Below are positions 42,733-52,380 of a stretch of DNA of 64,000 nt, piece after piece; the stretch's first letter is position 1; every line of letters starts with the position of its first letter. Both the position numbers and the translations under genes were made by a program. The notes under the pieces are model-generated. The model saw only the letters and a program-made list of their open reading frames with translations, did not search any database and was not told where the DNA came from. Source of the DNA: Zoogloea sp. (GTDB taxonomy: Bacteria > Pseudomonadota > Gammaproteobacteria > Burkholderiales > Rhodocyclaceae); the NCBI GenBank assembly GCA_016703645.1, contig JADJBR010000007.1:186001-250000 (forward strand), written 5' to 3'.

Positions 42733-44474
42733 TCAGGTTTGCAGCACATACGTGCCTGGTGCCTGGCACAAGGGGGCTATGCCTGCGGCAACGTTCCCCA
42801 TGGGGGGCGGTGCCGCGGTGGGTTCGCCTGAACGTGCATCAAGCCATGCGGTCCATTCCGGCCACCAGGATCCATCATGGGTGGGGGCGGCCTTGAGCCA
42901 TGCTTCCGGATCAAGATAGCGGCCGTCGTGAGGGCGGGTAAGGACTTGGTAGCTGCGGCCCGCCACGCCGGGTGGATTGACGATGCCCACATTGTGGCCG
43001 CCGGAGCTGAGCAGGAACGTGATGGGGACATCGGCTAGCAGGTGGAGTTTGTGCACCGAACGCCAGGGGGCAACGTGGTCTCGCAGGGTGGCAACACAGA
43101 AGATCGGGCAGGTGATGTCGGTCAGTGCCACCGGCAGCGTGCCCACCGGGTAGCGCCCGCTGGCCAGCTCATTGTCGAGAAACAGGCGCCGCAGGTACTC
43201 ACTGTGCATTCGGTAGGGTAGGCGCGTTCCGTCGGCATTCCAGGCCATGAGATCGGTTGTCGGGCGCCGATCACCCATCAGGTAGTCCTTGAGCATTCGC
43301 GACCACACCAGATCGCGGGAATTGAGCAATTGGAAGGCGCCGGCCATCTGCGTGCTGTCCAGGTAGCCCCGGTCCCACATGATGTCCTCAAGGAAGCTGA
43401 CCTGGCTGTTGTCAATGAAGAGGGCAAGCTCTCCCGGCTCGGTGAAGTCGGTCTGTGCAGCCAGCATCGACATGGATGCCAGGCGTGTGTCCTCATCGCG
43501 CCCCATCGCCGCAGCGGCAATGGCCAGCAGGGTGCCGCCCAGGCAGTAGCCCACGCCGTGGATCTGCTGTCCCGGCACGATCTGCGCCACTGCATCAAGC
43601 GCGTCCATCACGCCCGAGCGCAGGTAGTCATCCATGCCCAGATTGCGCCCGTCGCTGCCGGGATTGGCCCAGGAGATGGCGAACACTGTGTACCCGTGAT
43701 CCACCAGGAAACGGATCAAGGAGTTGCTTGGCGAGAGATCAAGGATGTAGTACTTCATGATCCACGACGGAACGATCAGGATCGGTTCGGGCCGTACGTG
43801 TGCCCGTTGGGGGTGTATTGGATCAGTTCGATCAGGTGGTTTCGGTAAATGACTTGACCCGGAGTGACGGCCACCTCCCGCCCTACCCGAAAGCCCGACG
43901 TCGCCGACCGGGAACTCGGCTGCCGATCCGACTGATCGGCGATCAGATTGCGCAGACCCCGGAGTAGATTGGCCCCACCGGATTGGACGGTGTGCTCCAG
44001 CAACTCCGGATTGGTCCCCAGAAAGTTCGCCGGGGATAGTGTGTCGAGCAACTGCCTGACGGTGAAGCTGACGACGTTTTCATGGTGCGGCGAAACCCCG
44101 CGTATGCCGGTTGTTGCGCTCCGCCACCACGCTTCGGTGAGTAGAAAGGACTGACTCCACAGATTGAATGGCCAAGCCTGCCACCCCGGATGGGTGAAAC
44201 GACGGTCGGGCAGGGAGGGGTCAAGGCCCAGCGTGCCGGCAGGGCGGGGAGGCTGCTGCAGGCGGCCGGGAAATTCCATGAGGGCCTGGAGGAGTCCTTG
44301 GACAAGCTCGGCCTGTTGTGCCGGATTCCGCGACAGGTGCATGAACCAGTCTTCAAACGCCATGACCAGCGCCTCGGGCGAAATGCCGCCCGTCAGACGC
44401 GCTAGCTGTGCGTGGGCGAATCGGTCCACGTTGCTGCCCGGCAGGGGGATTTCGGCGGAGGGAATACGGTTCAT
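42733..44474 (-). CDS. phaC: Polyhydroxyalkanoate synthase, interrupted by a 1-nt frameshift near 43791
   Basis: PHA synthase polymerises hydroxyacyl-CoA into storage granules. The N-terminal half is read from 44474 (MNRIPSAEIPLPG) to the segment YRNHLIELIQYTP. The C-terminal half is in another frame, beginning EPILIVPSWIMKYYILDLSP. The catalytic triad is intact: Cys in GYCLGGT, Asp in TLRDHVAPW, His in SSGGHNVGIVNPPG. At the junction the minus strand reads TACGGCCCGAACC; adding one G (TAC GGC GCC GAA CC) joins the frames into about 580 residues, a normal class I length. It may be a sequencing error or a decayed paralog. The ATG at 44474 is preferred to the longer 44663 frame on homology. Confidence 0.85.
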
Positions 44475-44719
44475 CGGGAGTTCTCTTTCTCGGGGCGATT
44501 GACGGAAATCATCTTCGCCATCCGCCGCGCCCGCGTCTGTATGGTGGCGTACAGAGTCTGGCTGCGTGGTGCTGCGTTTCGGCGGGATGTGCGTCAGCGT
44601 ACGGATGGTGGTGACCGACTGTTCCATAGTGGGTCGAGTCCTCAGTTTCATTGGCTGTTGCACTCACCATGCTCATCCGCCAGACCGGCGGCTCGCTGGA
44701 TATCACTCCAAGGAAAATC

Positions 44720-47431: not shown

Positions 47432-48205
47432 TCAGAGGGGAAGGTCGGCAATAAAGTCCTGGGCTTCCTGGCCCAGCTTGCGCTCAACGGCATCACGCAG
47501 GGTGGCGTACTGGGTGGTGTTGAGGGTCAGGCGTTGGGCGGCGGTCCAGAATTCCAGTTGCTGGGCGCCCCATTTGACAAAGAGCACGCGCCGCCGCGCG
47601 TCGTGGCTCTTGAAATGGAAAGCGCCCAAGGCCAGGGACAGGGCACCGTTATTGGCGGTCTGCACGGCGCCGATCTGAAAGTTGCCGCTGGCCTGGGTCG
47701 AGGTGTGGAAGTCGAAAAGGCGCAGGGTCTTGTCGTCCTCGGCCAGCTTTTCCAAGGCCTGGATCGCTTCGTTGAGCACTGCCAGCTGGTTCTGGGTGGC
47801 GATGGCGGCGATCAGGGCCAGGGCGGCCTGATCCATGCGCAGCTCGCCCTCCTGCTGGTCGTAACGGGCAAAGGCAAACTGCTCCGAGGTCCAGCCCAGG
47901 CGCTCGAGGATCTCGGTGTACTTCTTGTACCAGGCCTCGGTCTGCGCAAAGCGGTCGAAGGCCCCGCTCGCGCCCCGCAGGGCCAGTTGAACCGAAAACA
48001 ACACGTCGTCCCGTTGCTGGGGGGTGATGCCATCCACGAAGGACAGCAGCGCATTGCCGTCCACCGCTGGGGCCGGAGCGTCCGACGGGGCGCGGGCACT
48101 GCGGCTCACGGCCCGCCGCTGTGCCGACAGGGAGGCGTCAAGGCCCGTATCCAGGCGCGGCACGGGGGCTAGGGTCAGGGCGTCGATGTAGCGGAGGCTG
48201 GACAT
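47432..48205 (-). CDS. Unrecognised 257-residue protein paired with the CHAT/STAND gene
   Basis: I do not recognise this family. It has no signal peptide. Residues about 28-50 are Ala/Pro/Ser-rich and probably unstructured. Residues 50-150 are predicted helical (ALLSFVDGITPQQRDDVLFS ... MDQAALALIAAIATQNQLAV ... LNEAIQALEKLAEDD), and 160-235 look beta-rich (GNFQIGAVQTANNGALSLAL, RRRVLFVKWGAQQLEFW). It starts 47 bp after the CHAT gene stop on the same strand, so the two are very likely co-transcribed. By analogy with protease-effector pairs it may be the CHAT substrate or effector. That is inference only, and it shows no gasdermin motif. Confidence 0.7.
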   Translation of the reverse strand: MSSLRYIDALTLAPVPRLDTGLDASLSAQRRAVSRSARAPSDAPAPAVDGNALLSFVDGITPQQRDDVLFSVQLALRGASGAFDRFAQTEAWYKKYTEILERLGWTSEQFAFARYDQQEGELRMDQAALALIAAIATQNQLAVLNEAIQALEKLAEDDKTLRLFDFHTSTQASGNFQIGAVQTANNGALSLALGAFHFKSHDARRRVLFVKWGAQQLEFWTAAQRLTLNTTQYATLRDAVERKLGQEAQDFIADLPL

Positions 48206-48252
48206 GGCGGGCTCCTTGAGGGTGAGGGCGCGGGGGAGAGGTGCTTGGTATT

Positions 48253-51200
48253 TCAGTTTGGCCCGGCAATCATCGCGCGCAAGGTCGCGATGCGGGCGAT
48301 GCCCTGCGTGTTTCCGAGCTTGGTCCAGGCCTGTTCGGCGGCGTCGAGCACGCCGAGTGCTTCGTCCTTGAGACCGCCCATGGCGAGCACCTGGGCCAGC
48401 AGATCACCTACTCCCCCGATGAAGTCAGGCCGGCCAAGCTTGATGGACAGAGCGAAGGCCGTTGCCAGGTCATTGTGGATGGACTGGAGCTCACCCCGTT
48501 GATGGTCACCTCTTTCAAGGCGGATCCGGGCGCTGAGGAAGCCGATATGAGCCAGACTGTCCAGGTCGCCCAGACTTTCGGCGATGGGTCTTCGCTGTTC
48601 ATTGAGTGCCAGGGCTTGATCGAGCTCGCCCCGCGCTTGATGGATCTGGGCGATCTGGCCGAGGGTGACCGCCCGCGAGCGCACGTCGCCGAGCTTTTCG
48701 AAGACGGGCAACAGTTGGTCGATCAGGATGCGCGGGGCCGCGTCGAGCTCGCCGCGGGCGTAATGGATGTCGGCGATCTTGCCGAGGGTGACCGCCCGCG
48801 AGCGCACGTCACCGAGCTTTTCGTACACCGGCATTTCTTCCTCGATGCGGATGCGCAGGGCCTCGTCGAGCTCGCCGCGGGCGAAATGGATGTCGGCGAT
48901 CCTGCCGAGGGTGACCGCCCGCGAGTGCACGTCGCCGAGCTTTTCGAAGACGGGCAACTGTTCGTCGATGCGGATGCGCAGGGCCTCGTCGAGCTCGCCG
49001 CGGGCGAAATGGATGTCGGCGATTTTGCCGAGGGTGACCGCCCGCGAGCGCACGTCGCCGAGCTTTCCGAAGACGGGCAACTGTTCGTCGATGCGGATGC
49101 GCAGGGCCTCGTCGAGCTCGCCGCGGGCGTAATGGATGTCGGCGATCTCGCCGAGGGCAATGGCTCGATCACGTATGGCACCGGCTTTGTCGAACTGGGT
49201 GGCGGCCTCGGTGAAAGCGGTGTGGGCTGCGGAGGGGTTGCCGAGGGTGGATTGCCGATATCCCCGGCGCAGGAGCACCGAACCCAGGGTCGAGGCGTCA
49301 CCTTCCAGGCCGGTACAGGCGTCGAGCACCTGATCAAGCACGGTCACTTCGCCCAGACGTTCAGCACAATCGGCGGCGATAAGAAACAAGCCGGTGCTGG
49401 GAGGAACGGACTGGGCCTTCAGGCGCTGCATGGCGGGTTGAAGCAGGGTGTGGAGGGCCTGCCGGGCATCTTTTTGGCTATGGAACAGAAATAAGGCGGC
49501 GGAGGTTGTCGCGTCGTTCAGGAGATTCGCTGCGGGCGTGGTGGCGGCCAGGGCGAGGTGCGCGACTTCGACGGCGCGAAGGCTGAGCGGAAAGGCACCG
49601 TCACTTGCGCGCCAGTGCCGCTCCAGTTGCGGCAGGGCGGCGTCGGCGAGTCGGGCGCGCAGGGTGTCATCCAGCGGGATCGCCAGGGGGCGGGCGAGGG
49701 GGTTGGTGGCCACCTGGGCGACCGTGTCTTCCTGCCCCCAGTCGTCCACCAGCCCCAGCCCGATCAGGCGATCGAGTGCGGCGGCGGGGGCGCTGACGCC
49801 GGCGGCCTGCCCGGCCGCCTCCAGCGCGCTGCGGGGAACCGGCAGCCCGGGGGAGAACAGGCAGGCCGCCCGCAGCAGCTCGGCCTGGGCGGGGGTGAGG
49901 GCCTGGCGGTAGGCGTGAAAGGCCATGCGCTTGAAGAAGGCCAGGGTGGCGTTGCCGGTATCCGCCGCTGCGCCCTGGTCGATCAGGCGCTGGATGTCGG
50001 CGGGCGGTACGCCGTGCTGCTGGTAGTGCCCGATGTGGGCCATGGCCTGGGCGGCCACCTCGGTTTCGCCGACAAGGATGGGGCGGGTGAGGACGGCCTG
50101 AAGGCCCGGATTGCCGTCGGCGAGCAGCTGGGCCTGATGCAGCAGGGCCTTATCCACCGTGGCCGGGCCGTTCTGCCGGGCCAGGCGCGCGGCGCTGCGC
50201 AACTGCTTGCGCCGGTCGGTCTCGTCCATGGGCTGGAGCGGAATGGCGACGAGGGTGTCCGCCAGATCGTCGCCCCGGGGGGCGGGCAGGCTGAAGCGGT
50301 AGCGGCTGGTGACCAGGAGGCGCGATTCGGTGCGTGCGCGCCGGAAGGCGTGGAGGACGGCGGCGAGGGGGGCGCGAAAATCCGCCCTGAGCGGCGTGGC
50401 GGTGGCATCGGACGGGCTCGGCGCTTCCAGGATGCGCTCCAGGTCGTCGATGACCAGCAGGATGGGGCGGGTGTCGAAGGGGCCATCGAGCAGGGCCTCC
50501 AGGGCATCCGCAAGCTCGCCAGCGTTGGCGAGGACGGCGTTGCGCCAGGTGTCGATGACCGGCCTCCGTTCCGCAGCCGGCAAGGCCTCGCAGAGCCGGT
50601 CGAAAATGGCGAGGGCGTCGTAGCGGCCGAAGACCACCACTTTGGTGTGGCGGGGGTGGCGGGTGGCAATGCGGTAGGCCAGGCTGGACTTGCCCAGGTT
50701 GCCCATGCCGTGAATCAGCACGCCCTTTTCGCCGCTCCGGAAGGCGCGGATCACATCCTGGGTGGGGCGCCTGCGCCCGACGAACTCGCCCCGCCCTGCA
50801 ACGGGCACCTGCTGGTGGGCGGCGTCGAGGAACTGTTCCTCGCCACCGGCGGGCTTGCGCTTGGGCTTGCCCCGGGCGGCAAGGGGGCCGCCGCCTTGGG
50901 GGCCGAGGTAGAGACGGGCCAGGTGCCAGTGCCGGCCTTCCTGCGGATTGCCCAACTGGCGCTGGCGCAGGGCCTGCCGGGCGACGGCCGCCGCACGGGG
51001 TGCGCACTGCAGGCTGGCAAGCTCGCCATAGAAGTGCTCGGCAAAGGCGAGGGCGTCGCTGTCGTAAACCGATCCGTCCCAGCCCAGTACGTTGGCGATA
51101 CCGGCGCGGATGAGTTCGCGCACGAAGGGTTCGCTGCTGCGGGGGCCGGTGTCAGCCTGCTCGGCTGTCCGACAGGCCGACAGGAAAACCAGGGGCAGCG

Positions 51201-51924
51201 CGCGGGGGTCGCCCAGCGCACCCACAAGCTGGCCCACGGTGGTCAGCGCCAGGGCGCCCGTTTCATCCTCCAGGGCCAGGACTGGCCCCTGGGCCGGGTC
51301 GATGTCGCCATGGCAGGAGAGGTGCAAGGCTTCAAAAGGGCCGTCCAGGTCGAGGCGTTCACCCAGGGGGCCGGGGGCGCCACTCTCTTCGACCACCAGG
51401 TGCAGGGGCAGGCGCTGGGTGGCGGTGAGGATGGCTGATTCCTCCTCCTCGAAGCTGAGGGGGTGTTCCCCCCGGGGTGCGGCGGCCATGAAGAGCAGTT
51501 GCAGGTCGGCATGGCGGGGCTCGGGAGGCGGGGCTTCTTCGCCAATGCGCCGGGCCAGTTCAAAGAGCTGGACGCTGTCGTCGGCCAGATGGCCCTCGGG
51601 AAGGGCGAGGAGTTCCCAGGGGGCGTCGAGCAGGGCCAGGGCGAGGGGGGAATCAACGCCGGTGACGCGGATTTCCAGCTCGCGTGGGCCACCGCCCCGC
51701 GCCCAGGCGCCGGCCCAGCCGCTCGGGTCCAGCCATTCGAACAGCTCCCGCCCGATGGCCAGCAAGGCTGCGTCATCGCCCCGTCGGCAGGCAATGTCAT
51801 AGCGGGCAGCCCAGCCCTGGAGCGCGGGCAGGGCGCCGCTTCCGTCGAGGCGGGATTCGGGGTGGGTGCTGTCCTGGCTGCGGCAAAGGAGGTCGGTGCC
51901 GAGAATCCGGATGGAGGCTTTCAT
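48253..51924 (-). CDS. CHAT protease - STAND NTPase - TPR repeat protein
   Basis: A 1223-residue multidomain sensor. Residues 1-130 form an N-terminal region (DSPLALALLDAPWELLALPE) often found before CHAT domains. The CHAT (caspase-like) protease domain spans about 140-340 with His205 (ALHLSCHGD) and Cys251 (LVFLSACRTAE). A STAND/NB-ARC-like NTPase follows from about 380 (FVGRRRPTQD), with Walker A GMGNLGKSS at 406-414 and Walker B ILLVIDD at 488-494. A winged-helix/helical region leads to TPR repeats. Five 41-residue units at about 910-1105 (consensus RSRAVTLGKIADIHFARGEL) are nearly identical. Start at 51924 (MKASIRILG). It is followed by an unknown 257-residue gene and then ada-alkA. Such architectures occur in bacterial conflict and programmed-death systems; the trigger and target here are unknown. 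Confidence 0.88.
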   Translation of the reverse strand: MKASIRILGTDLLCRSQDSTHPESRLDGSGALPALQGWAARYDIACRRGDDAALLAIGRELFEWLDPSGWAGAWARGGGPRELEIRVTGVDSPLALALLDAPWELLALPEGHLADDSVQLFELARRIGEEAPPPEPRHADLQLLFMAAAPRGEHPLSFEEEESAILTATQRLPLHLVVEESGAPGPLGERLDLDGPFEALHLSCHGDIDPAQGPVLALEDETGALALTTVGQLVGALGDPRALPLVFLSACRTAEQADTGPRSSEPFVRELIRAGIANVLGWDGSVYDSDALAFAEHFYGELASLQCAPRAAAVARQALRQRQLGNPQEGRHWHLARLYLGPQGGGPLAARGKPKRKPAGGEEQFLDAAHQQVPVAGRGEFVGRRRPTQDVIRAFRSGEKGVLIHGMGNLGKSSLAYRIATRHPRHTKVVVFGRYDALAIFDRLCEALPAAERRPVIDTWRNAVLANAGELADALEALLDGPFDTRPILLVIDDLERILEAPSPSDATATPLRADFRAPLAAVLHAFRRARTESRLLVTSRYRFSLPAPRGDDLADTLVAIPLQPMDETDRRKQLRSAARLARQNGPATVDKALLHQAQLLADGNPGLQAVLTRPILVGETEVAAQAMAHIGHYQQHGVPPADIQRLIDQGAAADTGNATLAFFKRMAFHAYRQALTPAQAELLRAACLFSPGLPVPRSALEAAGQAAGVSAPAAALDRLIGLGLVDDWGQEDTVAQVATNPLARPLAIPLDDTLRARLADAALPQLERHWRASDGAFPLSLRAVEVAHLALAATTPAANLLNDATTSAALFLFHSQKDARQALHTLLQPAMQRLKAQSVPPSTGLFLIAADCAERLGEVTVLDQVLDACTGLEGDASTLGSVLLRRGYRQSTLGNPSAAHTAFTEAATQFDKAGAIRDRAIALGEIADIHYARGELDEALRIRIDEQLPVFGKLGDVRSRAVTLGKIADIHFARGELDEALRIRIDEQLPVFEKLGDVHSRAVTLGRIADIHFARGELDEALRIRIEEEMPVYEKLGDVRSRAVTLGKIADIHYARGELDAAPRILIDQLLPVFEKLGDVRSRAVTLGQIAQIHQARGELDQALALNEQRRPIAESLGDLDSLAHIGFLSARIRLERGDHQRGELQSIHNDLATAFALSIKLGRPDFIGGVGDLLAQVLAMGGLKDEALGVLDAAEQAWTKLGNTQGIARIATLRAMIAGPN
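48600..49200 (-). repeat. 123-bp tandem repeats encoding TPR units
   Basis: GAGGGTGACC-type anchor sequences recur at 48661, 48784, 48907, 49030 and (slightly diverged, GAGGGCAATG) 49153, an exact 123-bp period encoding 41 residues. The units starting at 48907 and 49030 differ at only about five of 123 positions. Such DNA-level identity points to recent duplication or gene conversion, and the array length may vary between strains. Confidence 0.9.
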
Positions 51925-52380
51925 CGTGCGGGCCGTTGGCAAGGGCTTGGGGTGGAGGGCAGGAAGAAGTCTATCCGAAACGCCTATGCCGGAGGTCTGG
52001 CCGGACGCGGAGGGAGGGCGATGAGTGGGGGCACCCGTGCCCAGGTCGACCACGCGGATTCGGGCTTGAGACGGAGGCTGTCAGGGCAATGGCACCCGTG
52101 CGTCTTGTAAATTGATACAAACTGCAAAAACAAAGTATTTGACCAAAACGCAGGAGGTGATAACTTTGCTGGCAAATTTGAGGTTTGTTTTGGCTTCTTG
52201 CAGGTGAATTTGATGTTTGTGCCGGTGTGGGGGCGTTTGCAGCGACACCGGCCAAGGGAGTGCGCCCGGAATTTCCACTGCTGATGCTCTTTCGTGTCCC
52301 GCTACATGTGTTGCTGCGGGATGATTTTCACAGATTTAAGCGTGGCCAATCGACTGGCCAGGTGCGGAGCGGACAACCGT
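51925..52380. promoter_or_regulatory. Divergent region between the CHAT gene and the heparinase gene
   Basis: 456 bp with an AT-rich core (about 52100-52215). TTGTA-AATTGA-TACAA at 52105-52120 is an inverted repeat of the kind bound by small HTH repressors and may control the CHAT operon. AGGAGGTGATAAC at 52151-52163 is an almost perfect complement of the 16S rRNA 3' end, but is followed only by a TTG-started 13-codon frame ending in TGA. I see no real gene. Confidence 0.4.

What the first reader, a model, noticed from the sequence alone, without database searches (positions are those of the whole stretch)
47432..52120. Two-gene CHAT protease/STAND/TPR system with an unrecognised partner protein
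Seen: one intact 1223-residue frame combining a CHAT caspase-like protease with His205 and Cys251, a STAND-type NTPase with Walker A and B, and a TPR array. It is followed 47 bp later by a 257-residue protein I cannot assign. Known: in bacteria, CHAT or caspase-like proteases fused to STAND/TPR sensors act in programmed-death and anti-phage conflict systems, where a neighbouring protein is often cleaved into an effector. Inference: the partner, with a helical front half and a beta-rich back half, is the protease substrate or effector. An inverted repeat TTGTA-N6-TACAA upstream may hold the operon silent.
Basis: partly seen in the sequence, partly recalled or inferred. Interest (0 to 1): 0.85.

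Follow-up and report, generated by a model that had tools for sequence, protein, structure and literature searches.

The report
Protease-receptor gene with an unrecognised partner
A bacterium related to wastewater Zoogloea carries a caspase-like protease built into an immune-receptor-like protein, next to a protein of an unnamed family that in some other bacteria sits beside, or is fused to, proteases and lipid- or wall-cutting enzymes; together they look like a cell-death or defence switch, but this is untested.

Summary
In detail: a 1223-aa CHAT–STAND–TPR gene and, 47 bp on, a 257-aa gene. The partner matched no family significantly in Pfam, PADLOC, PHROGs, NCBIfam or PDB sequences, yet it is a real family. 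Of 17 contexts (my grouping) 8 have a CHAT/caspase or trypsin-type peptidase fused, beside it or two genes away; 9 do not. In one genus of another class it is the C-terminal part of a GDSL–caspase–M15 protein. All 3 of 199 family genomes with this CHAT subfamily (E up to 1e-30) have the partner next door, in both gene orders. Two members 24% identical model alike: confident N-terminal helix, low-confidence linker, alpha/beta core. The TPR array is a 123-bp tandem repeat; in one relative 13 units differ at three codons, all amino-acid changing, as reported for fungal NLR repeats. Two same-genus genomes have an empty site; one close relative has the partner without CHAT. Best reading: a compact NLR-like protease receptor acting on a non-gasdermin executioner. 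Cleavage, toxicity and defence are untested.

The parts
48253..51924 (-). CHAT–STAND–TPR receptor-like protease gene, 1223 aa (alternative GTG start at 52053)
50950..51636 (-). CHAT (caspase-like) domain, residues 97-325; His205 at 51310-51312, Cys251 at 51172-51174
   Evidence: Pfam PF12770 E 1.7e-17; residues checked
50422..50787 (-). STAND/AAA_16 NTPase part, residues 380-501; Walker A 50686-50709, Walker B 50443-50463
   Evidence: Pfam PF13191 E 2e-10; motifs
48574..49188 (-). C-terminal TPR array, five 41-aa units of which the outer two are diverged; Tandem Repeats Finder gives 48620-49157, 123 bp, 4.4 copies, 90% matches
47432..48205 (-). Partner gene, 257 aa, unrecognised family; AAGGAG just upstream of its ATG
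48170..48190 (-). Partner N-terminal motif YIDALTL (residues 6-12), at the end of a short segment modelled at mean pLDDT 91 (residues 1-10)
48083..48151 (-). Arg-rich linker of the partner (residues 19-41, pLDDT below 50): proposed cleavage region (inference)
47435..47455 (-). Partner C-terminal motif FIADLPL (residues 251-257), similar to the N-terminal motif
48234..51945 (.). Segment (the CHAT gene almost exactly) absent from the metagenome-assembled Zoogloea sp. UWPOB_ZOOG2 (L002); similar 18-mers stand at 48216-48233 and 51946-51963
52105..52120 (.). Inverted repeat TTGTA-N6-TACAA upstream; chance-level in the genome, role unsupported; the same 16 bases stand upstream of the partner in L002

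Best explanation
The pair is a compact NLR-like protease-receptor/executioner module. Shown by sequence: an N-terminal CHAT protease with intact His and Cys, a central STAND-type NTPase, a C-terminal TPR array whose copy number differs between relatives, and a partner gene that travels with it. Inferred: (1) the TPR array binds a trigger, with codons 7, 14, 20 and 36 of the unit as candidate contacts; (2) binding lets the STAND part take ATP and oligomerise, which switches on the CHAT protease; (3) the protease cuts the partner in its Arg-rich linker between the N-terminal helix, which I take to be docked as a latch, and the core; (4) loss of that latch lets the core act as executioner, most likely at the cell envelope, because several relatives of the partner sit beside or are fused to lipid- and peptidoglycan-cutting enzymes. 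The outcome would be growth arrest or death of the challenged cell.
For: Domains, catalytic residues and Walker motifs. CHAT subfamily (residues 1-880 as query, E up to 1e-30) in 3 of 199 family genomes, each beside a partner gene, in both gene orders. Other CHAT–partner loci: G012 (DUF7379–LCAT–CHAT–TPR-S protein directly 5' of the partner, patatin gene second downstream) and Rhizobium leguminosarum pRL31b3 (CHAT–TPR-S, GH108 endolysin-type, partner, TIR–nSTAND1–WD40). Partner domain behind GDSL–caspase C14–M15 on one chain in G783 (read and scanned fully); its 15 matching relatives have open frames of 1134-1212 aa at the match, Pfam not run on them. Trypsin_2 genes directly next (G282) or two genes on (Sinorhizobium). 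Same helix–linker–core plan modelled for two members 24% identical. Arg commoner in the linker than in the core in 13 of 15 rows, which are not independent. Repeats: L015 3 nonsynonymous and 0 synonymous-only variable codons in 13 units; L014 4 and 1 in 4 units. Partner dN/dS 0.14 between window and L002. Precedents: caspase-activated pro-nuclease Canu (PMC12799240, abstract, opening and one section); fungal CHAT–TPR protease activating a gasdermin (PMC12881547, passages).
Against: No cleavage, toxicity or phage data. In 9 of 17 contexts I saw no CHAT/caspase or trypsin-type peptidase within two genes (for example a lone gene by cobalamin genes, and tandem paralogues). The partner persists under purifying selection without CHAT in UWPOB_ZOOG2, so it may act without this protease. 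No defence gene among the eight flanking proteins scanned. The window's own array is less uniform (11 nonsynonymous against 3 synonymous-only codons in 3 units; pN/pS 0.93 over 4 units), so the diversity signal rests mainly on L015. The STAND assignment is modest (AAA_16 in the window; nSTAND1 in L014 at 25.9 bits, just below its cut-off of 27.1). That the N-terminal helix is docked is inferred from pLDDT; I had no coordinates.
Confidence: 0.45

Rival explanations
1. The partner is a non-cleaved adaptor that joins a sensor to exchangeable hydrolase effectors (proteases, lipases, wall hydrolases), like the coupling domains described for bacterial conflict systems; the similar motifs at both ends are docking or assembly motifs.
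For: Its neighbours are many unrelated enzymes: CHAT, caspase, trypsin, GDSL, patatin, Amidase_3, M15, GH108, TIR–STAND. It is fused to enzymes in one genus. Similar motif in the N-terminal window of 12 of 17 members and the C-terminal window of 11 of 17, against 6% and 2.5% of interior windows; pattern chosen after seeing the sequences. It lives on without CHAT. Coupling-adaptor precedent (EADs): PMC7159879, passages.
Against: A low-confidence linker between a confident helix and the core is more than a plain adaptor needs. PMC7159879 describes EADs as present on both the core and the stand-alone components; here none of 30 neighbour proteins has the strict terminal motif in its first 24 or last 14 residues.
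Confidence: 0.3
2. The partner is an inhibitor or immunity protein that holds the CHAT protease in check; UWPOB_ZOOG2 keeps an orphan inhibitor after losing the protease.
For: Tight linkage in both gene orders; loss of CHAT but not of the partner in L002, with partner dN/dS 0.14.
Against: The family also stands beside trypsin, GDSL or GH108 genes and, in other genomes, with no peptidase seen. In the fusion it lies on the same chain as the caspase.
Confidence: 0.1
3. The two genes are neighbours of no joint function: an NLR-like gene and an unrelated accessory gene carried in together.
For: In 9 of 17 contexts I saw no CHAT/caspase or trypsin-type peptidase within two genes.
Against: 3 of 3 adjacency within this CHAT subfamily, with the gene order reversed in two genomes of one genus, plus separate CHAT loci and a caspase fusion.
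Confidence: 0.08

Closest known systems
Fungal (and bacterial) gasdermin–protease two-gene clusters
   Same: Two adjacent genes: a receptor-like multidomain protease (CHAT plus NTPase or repeats) and a separate partner; caspase and receptor on one chain; the fungal gasdermin HET-Q1 loses a short end on cleavage (passages in PMC10197012 and PMC12881547).
   Different: The partner has no detectable sequence similarity to any Pfam family or PDB sequence. The proposed latch is N-terminal, whereas gasdermins lose a C-terminal piece. Fold comparison could not be run.
Craspase/CASP (type III-E CRISPR): TPR-CHAT Csx29 with substrate Csx30
   Same: CHAT protease with TPRs and a separately encoded protein substrate cut in a flexible loop (PMC10028731, passages).
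   Different: In the window CHAT is N-terminal and a STAND-type NTPase is present; none of the eight flanking proteins scanned is a Cas protein; P0001 and P0002 have no Cas match in PADLOC.
Canu and trypsin–nuclease pairs in Hachiman and AVAST
   Same: Peptidases of different folds recruited next to one pro-effector family (PMC12799240, abstract, opening and one section).
   Different: The partner family has no nuclease match in Pfam or PADLOC.
Kaur et al. 2020 peptidase conflict systems with Trypco/EAD components
   Same: Peptidase, alpha/beta hydrolase and second-messenger or TIR parts mixed and matched (PMC7159879, passages).
   Different: No MoxR, vWA or VMAP protein among the neighbours scanned; the partner matches no Pfam model.
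Fungal NLRs with highly conserved, hypervariable TPR/WD repeats
   Same: Near-identical TPR units (41 aa here, mostly 42 there), copy-number variation, variation at a few codons (PMC4986451, passages).
   Different: Bacterial; CHAT effector; variation within a species not measured.

Membership tests
NLR-like STAND receptor | N-terminal effector, central NTPase with Walker A and B, C-terminal repeats | tested here: met
NLR-like STAND receptor | Ligand-driven oligomerisation | not testable with these tools
   needs biochemistry
Active CHAT protease | Catalytic His–Cys pair | tested here: met
   His205, Cys251; aligned in 6 of 6 CHAT domains compared; activity itself not tested
Gasdermin–protease two-gene cluster | Receptor-like protease gene adjacent to the executioner gene | tested here: inconclusive
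   adjacency met in 3 of 3 genomes with the subfamily, but that the partner is an executioner is inferred
Gasdermin–protease two-gene cluster | Partner is a gasdermin by sequence | tested here: not met
   no Pfam hit for P0002; 15 family members hit only 5 families, none a gasdermin, best E 0.0072; no PDB sequence at E up to 10, nor by profile at E up to 5
Gasdermin–protease two-gene cluster | Partner has the gasdermin fold | not testable with these tools
   Fold search switched off
Type III-E Craspase | Cas7-11 and Csx30 at the locus | tested here: not met
   eight flanking proteins: Ada, AlkA-type, heparinase II/III, HDOD, exo/endophosphatase, abhydrolase, PhaC N-terminus, YflT; no Cas match of the pair in PADLOC
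Canu (caspase–pro-nuclease) | Partner is a metallo-beta-lactamase-type nuclease | tested here: not met
   no such Pfam hit
Kaur 2020 ternary conflict systems | MoxR–vWA–VMAP core, or a Trypco domain in the partner | tested here: not met
   (eight flanking proteins only); that Trypco1/2 have Pfam models is recalled, from no call
Fungal-type hypervariable repeat receptor | Repeats over 85% alike, few hypervariable codons, excess amino-acid change | tested here: met
   met in the relatives: L015 3 nonsynonymous/0 synonymous-only in 13 units, L014 4/1 in 4 units; weaker in the window itself, 11/3 in 3 units. No formal test of selection was run

The most novel reading that the evidence does not exclude
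The partner founds a new class of protease-unlocked executioner, distinct from gasdermins and pro-nucleases. Its N- and C-terminal motifs are alike, so cutting the linker would free the N-terminal latch and let cores join head to tail (or expose the groove that the C-terminal motif of the next subunit fills). The resulting assembly would open the envelope to cytosolic lipases and endolysin-like enzymes that lack evident export signals. It would be controlled by a bacterial receptor whose TPR repeats diversify by recombination, as in fungal self/non-self NLRs.
Probability: 0.15. Interest if true: 0.92.

Novelty: new variant of a known kind. Interest (0 to 1): 0.68.

Why it matters
If true, it adds a protein family that is absent from the libraries searched here to the short list of families that peptidases of more than one fold keep being paired with, and so a likely new execution step in bacterial cell death. 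On the receptor side, TPR repeats that are nearly identical but differ at a few codons make the question of what bacterial NLR-like proteins recognise directly testable with natural repeat variants. Zoogloea sp. UWPOB_ZOOG2, which has the partner without CHAT, is a natural control.

Tried and rejected
Partner by library: Pfam, PADLOC, PHROGs (best E 0.4), NCBIfam (best E 0.028, diol dehydratase small subunit) and PDB sequences, no significant match. Phage records: none at E up to 0.1. Viral contigs: none by two single-protein scans. Palindrome as regulon: at chance level. A second CHAT locus of the same genome (L073) as a sister system: no partner-family frame in the stretch; neighbours CobW and topoisomerase IV. 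Of 357 genomes of the class of G783 only G783 itself matched; the limit on scored candidates there may hide weak members. Class and phylum samples around the window gave 3 of 369 and 8 of 398, G000 counted in both. No paper describing this partner came up in my ten paper searches, which cannot search by sequence and miss most subscription journals.

The 17 contexts, my own grouping. CHAT/caspase or trypsin-type peptidase fused, beside or two genes away (8): window; G018/G158; G012; G282/G406; G783 and relatives; S. meliloti tandem pair; S. fredii and S. meliloti RCAM1115; R. leguminosarum. None seen (9): UWPOB_ZOOG2/G1305; G130 (GDSL; short contig of 4749 bases); G150/G067/G115; G785/G832/G856/G890 (cobalamin genes read in G856 only, same frame lengths in the others); G680; G922; Vibrio; Curtobacterium; Qingshengfaniella. 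Pfam was run on selected neighbours only, so 'none seen' is not 'none'. No matched random-gene control for nearby peptidases was run.
Full report
What is there. On the minus strand a 1223-aa gene (51924..48253) is followed after 47 bp by a 257-aa gene (48205..47432). The first carries CHAT (97-325), an AAA_16/STAND part (380-501) and TPRs. The window lies in a 4.99-Mb genome of the same genus as a record named Zoogloea sp.; the partner occurs once in it and CHAT domains at five places.

The partner is a real but unnamed family. P0002 has no significant match in Pfam, PADLOC, PHROGs, NCBIfam or PDB sequences. Homologues were found in 8 of 199 genomes of the family, 3 of 369 of the class, 8 of 398 of the phylum and 16 of 61 relatives of G783, with G000 or G783 counted in these; in 49 plasmid records at E up to 0.1, 45 of them Sinorhizobium; and in no phage record. 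W92, G104, W105 and F164 are invariant or nearly so.

Company it keeps. All 3 of 199 family genomes with this CHAT–STAND–TPR subfamily (E up to 1e-30) have the partner adjacent; the window has CHAT then partner, G018 and G158 (one genus) have partner then CHAT. Separate CHAT loci are G012 and R. leguminosarum pRL31b3, in the latter with a GH108 gene between. In G783, of another class, the partner is the C-terminal part of a GDSL–caspase C14–M15 protein, and 15 relatives have open frames of 1134-1212 aa at the match (Pfam run on G783 only). Trypsin_2 genes stand next (G282) or two genes on (Sinorhizobium). Lipid- or wall-type enzymes nearby are GDSL, Amidase_3, M15, GH108, LCAT-like and patatin. 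The GH108 protein, the two GDSL–amidase–M15 proteins and the fusion have no hydrophobic stretch over the crude threshold used. Of my 17 contexts, 8 have a CHAT/caspase or trypsin-type peptidase fused, beside or two genes away; in 9 I saw none. No random-gene control was run.

Partner anatomy. AlphaFold2 models of P0002 (pLDDT 80.6, pTM 0.82) and of the G012 member, 24% identical (83.2, 0.86), agree: a short N-terminal helix with high confidence, a low-confidence linker, then strand–helix–helix–strand–three helices–three long strands–helices and a C-terminal strand. A motif (hydrophobic pair, two residues, L-x-L) near the N-terminus recurs at the C-terminus: a loose form in 12 of 17 N-terminal and 11 of 17 C-terminal windows against 6% and 2.5% of interior windows; a strict form in 10 and 6 of 17 against 0.14% and 0. 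The pattern was chosen after looking and the rows are related, so this is a lead. None of 30 neighbour proteins has the strict form in its first 24 or last 14 residues. Arg is commoner in the linker than in the core in 13 of 15 rows.

Receptor anatomy. The TPR region is a 123-bp in-frame tandem repeat: 4.4 copies in the window (90% matches), 4.9 in L014 (97%), 13.8 in L015 (98%). In L015, 13 units differ at codons 7, 14 and 36 only, all amino-acid changing, with no synonymous-only codon; in L014, 4 units differ at 7, 14, 20 and 36, plus one synonymous codon; in the window, 3 units have 11 nonsynonymous (14, 20 and 36 among them) and 3 synonymous-only codons. For these counts I left out the diverged outer units (before and after the array; in the window those at residues 913 and 1077). 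With the last unit kept, pN/pS was 0.93 (window), 1.16 (L014) and 1.38 (L015); no formal test of selection was run. L014 and L015 are from one genus and are not independent. Near-identical repeats with hypervariable positions are what PMC4986451 reports for fungal NLRs (passages).

History. Of 19 same-genus genomes with the neighbouring heparinase (of 23 searched) I fetched the upstream stretch of 11, the window's own not among them. Two (L102, L103) have heparinase and ada as neighbours with neither gene between. One (L101, G1305) has the partner at 93% identity and no CHAT. The other eight, two of them short contig ends, show neither gene and no ada, so they say nothing about the site. L101 matches Zoogloea sp. 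UWPOB_ZOOG2 (L002) in identity and in contig length (45602), so I take them as one genome. L002 lacks window 48234-51945, almost exactly the CHAT gene. The partner there has dN/dS 0.14, like heparinase 0.146 (Ada 0.274). Part of that divergence may predate the loss, and the record is a metagenome assembly. So the partner is kept without CHAT, which fits a latent substrate or an adaptor better than a free toxin.

How it most likely works. The trigger binds the TPR array, the STAND part oligomerises, CHAT is switched on and cuts the partner's linker, and the unlatched core acts at the envelope. Only the parts list, the linkage and the modelled helix–linker–core plan are shown; every step of the action is inference. 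The nearest published logic is the fungal CHAT–gasdermin cluster (PMC10197012, PMC12881547, passages), Canu (PMC12799240, abstract, opening and one section) and Csx29–Csx30 (PMC10028731, passages). PMC8195603 and PMC10907252 were also looked at in passages. The chief rival is an uncut adaptor.

Verdict. It is a new variant of a known kind: an NLR-like protease receptor with a so far unnamed partner family.

Noticed in passing
window 42733-44663 (-): PhaC (PHB polymerase) looks split into a 295-aa frame with PhaC_N and a 341-aa abhydrolase frame: a frame break or a sequencing error; not looked into.
   Followed up: no
L015:4957-6651, L014:12361-12965, window:48620-49157: 123-bp TPR repeat differs in copy number between relatives (13.8, 4.9, 4.4), with variation focused on a few codons in L014 and L015.
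   Followed up: yes
L016, L017, L046 (three copies), L018 (two found), L020/L024: Partner family in tandem paralogues, three in a row in L016, L017 and L046, hinting at hetero-oligomers.
   Followed up: partly
L046:571-7596: A TcdA/TcdB pore-and-glycosyltransferase-type gene lies near the partner triplet in G680; described only.
   Followed up: no
L041:8714-15432: Operon-like row in G783: 738-aa protein of no Pfam match, GDSL–caspase–M15–partner fusion, 366-aa hydrophobic protein.
   Followed up: partly
L019:827-14340: Island in G012 of TPR-S proteins, LCAT–CHAT–TPR-S, partner, hydrophobic protein and patatin phospholipase.
   Followed up: partly
G000 C4:468970, C7:519517, C9:1137287, C7:1891991: Four further CHAT matches in the same genome, none with a partner-family frame in the stretch fetched.
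   Followed up: partly
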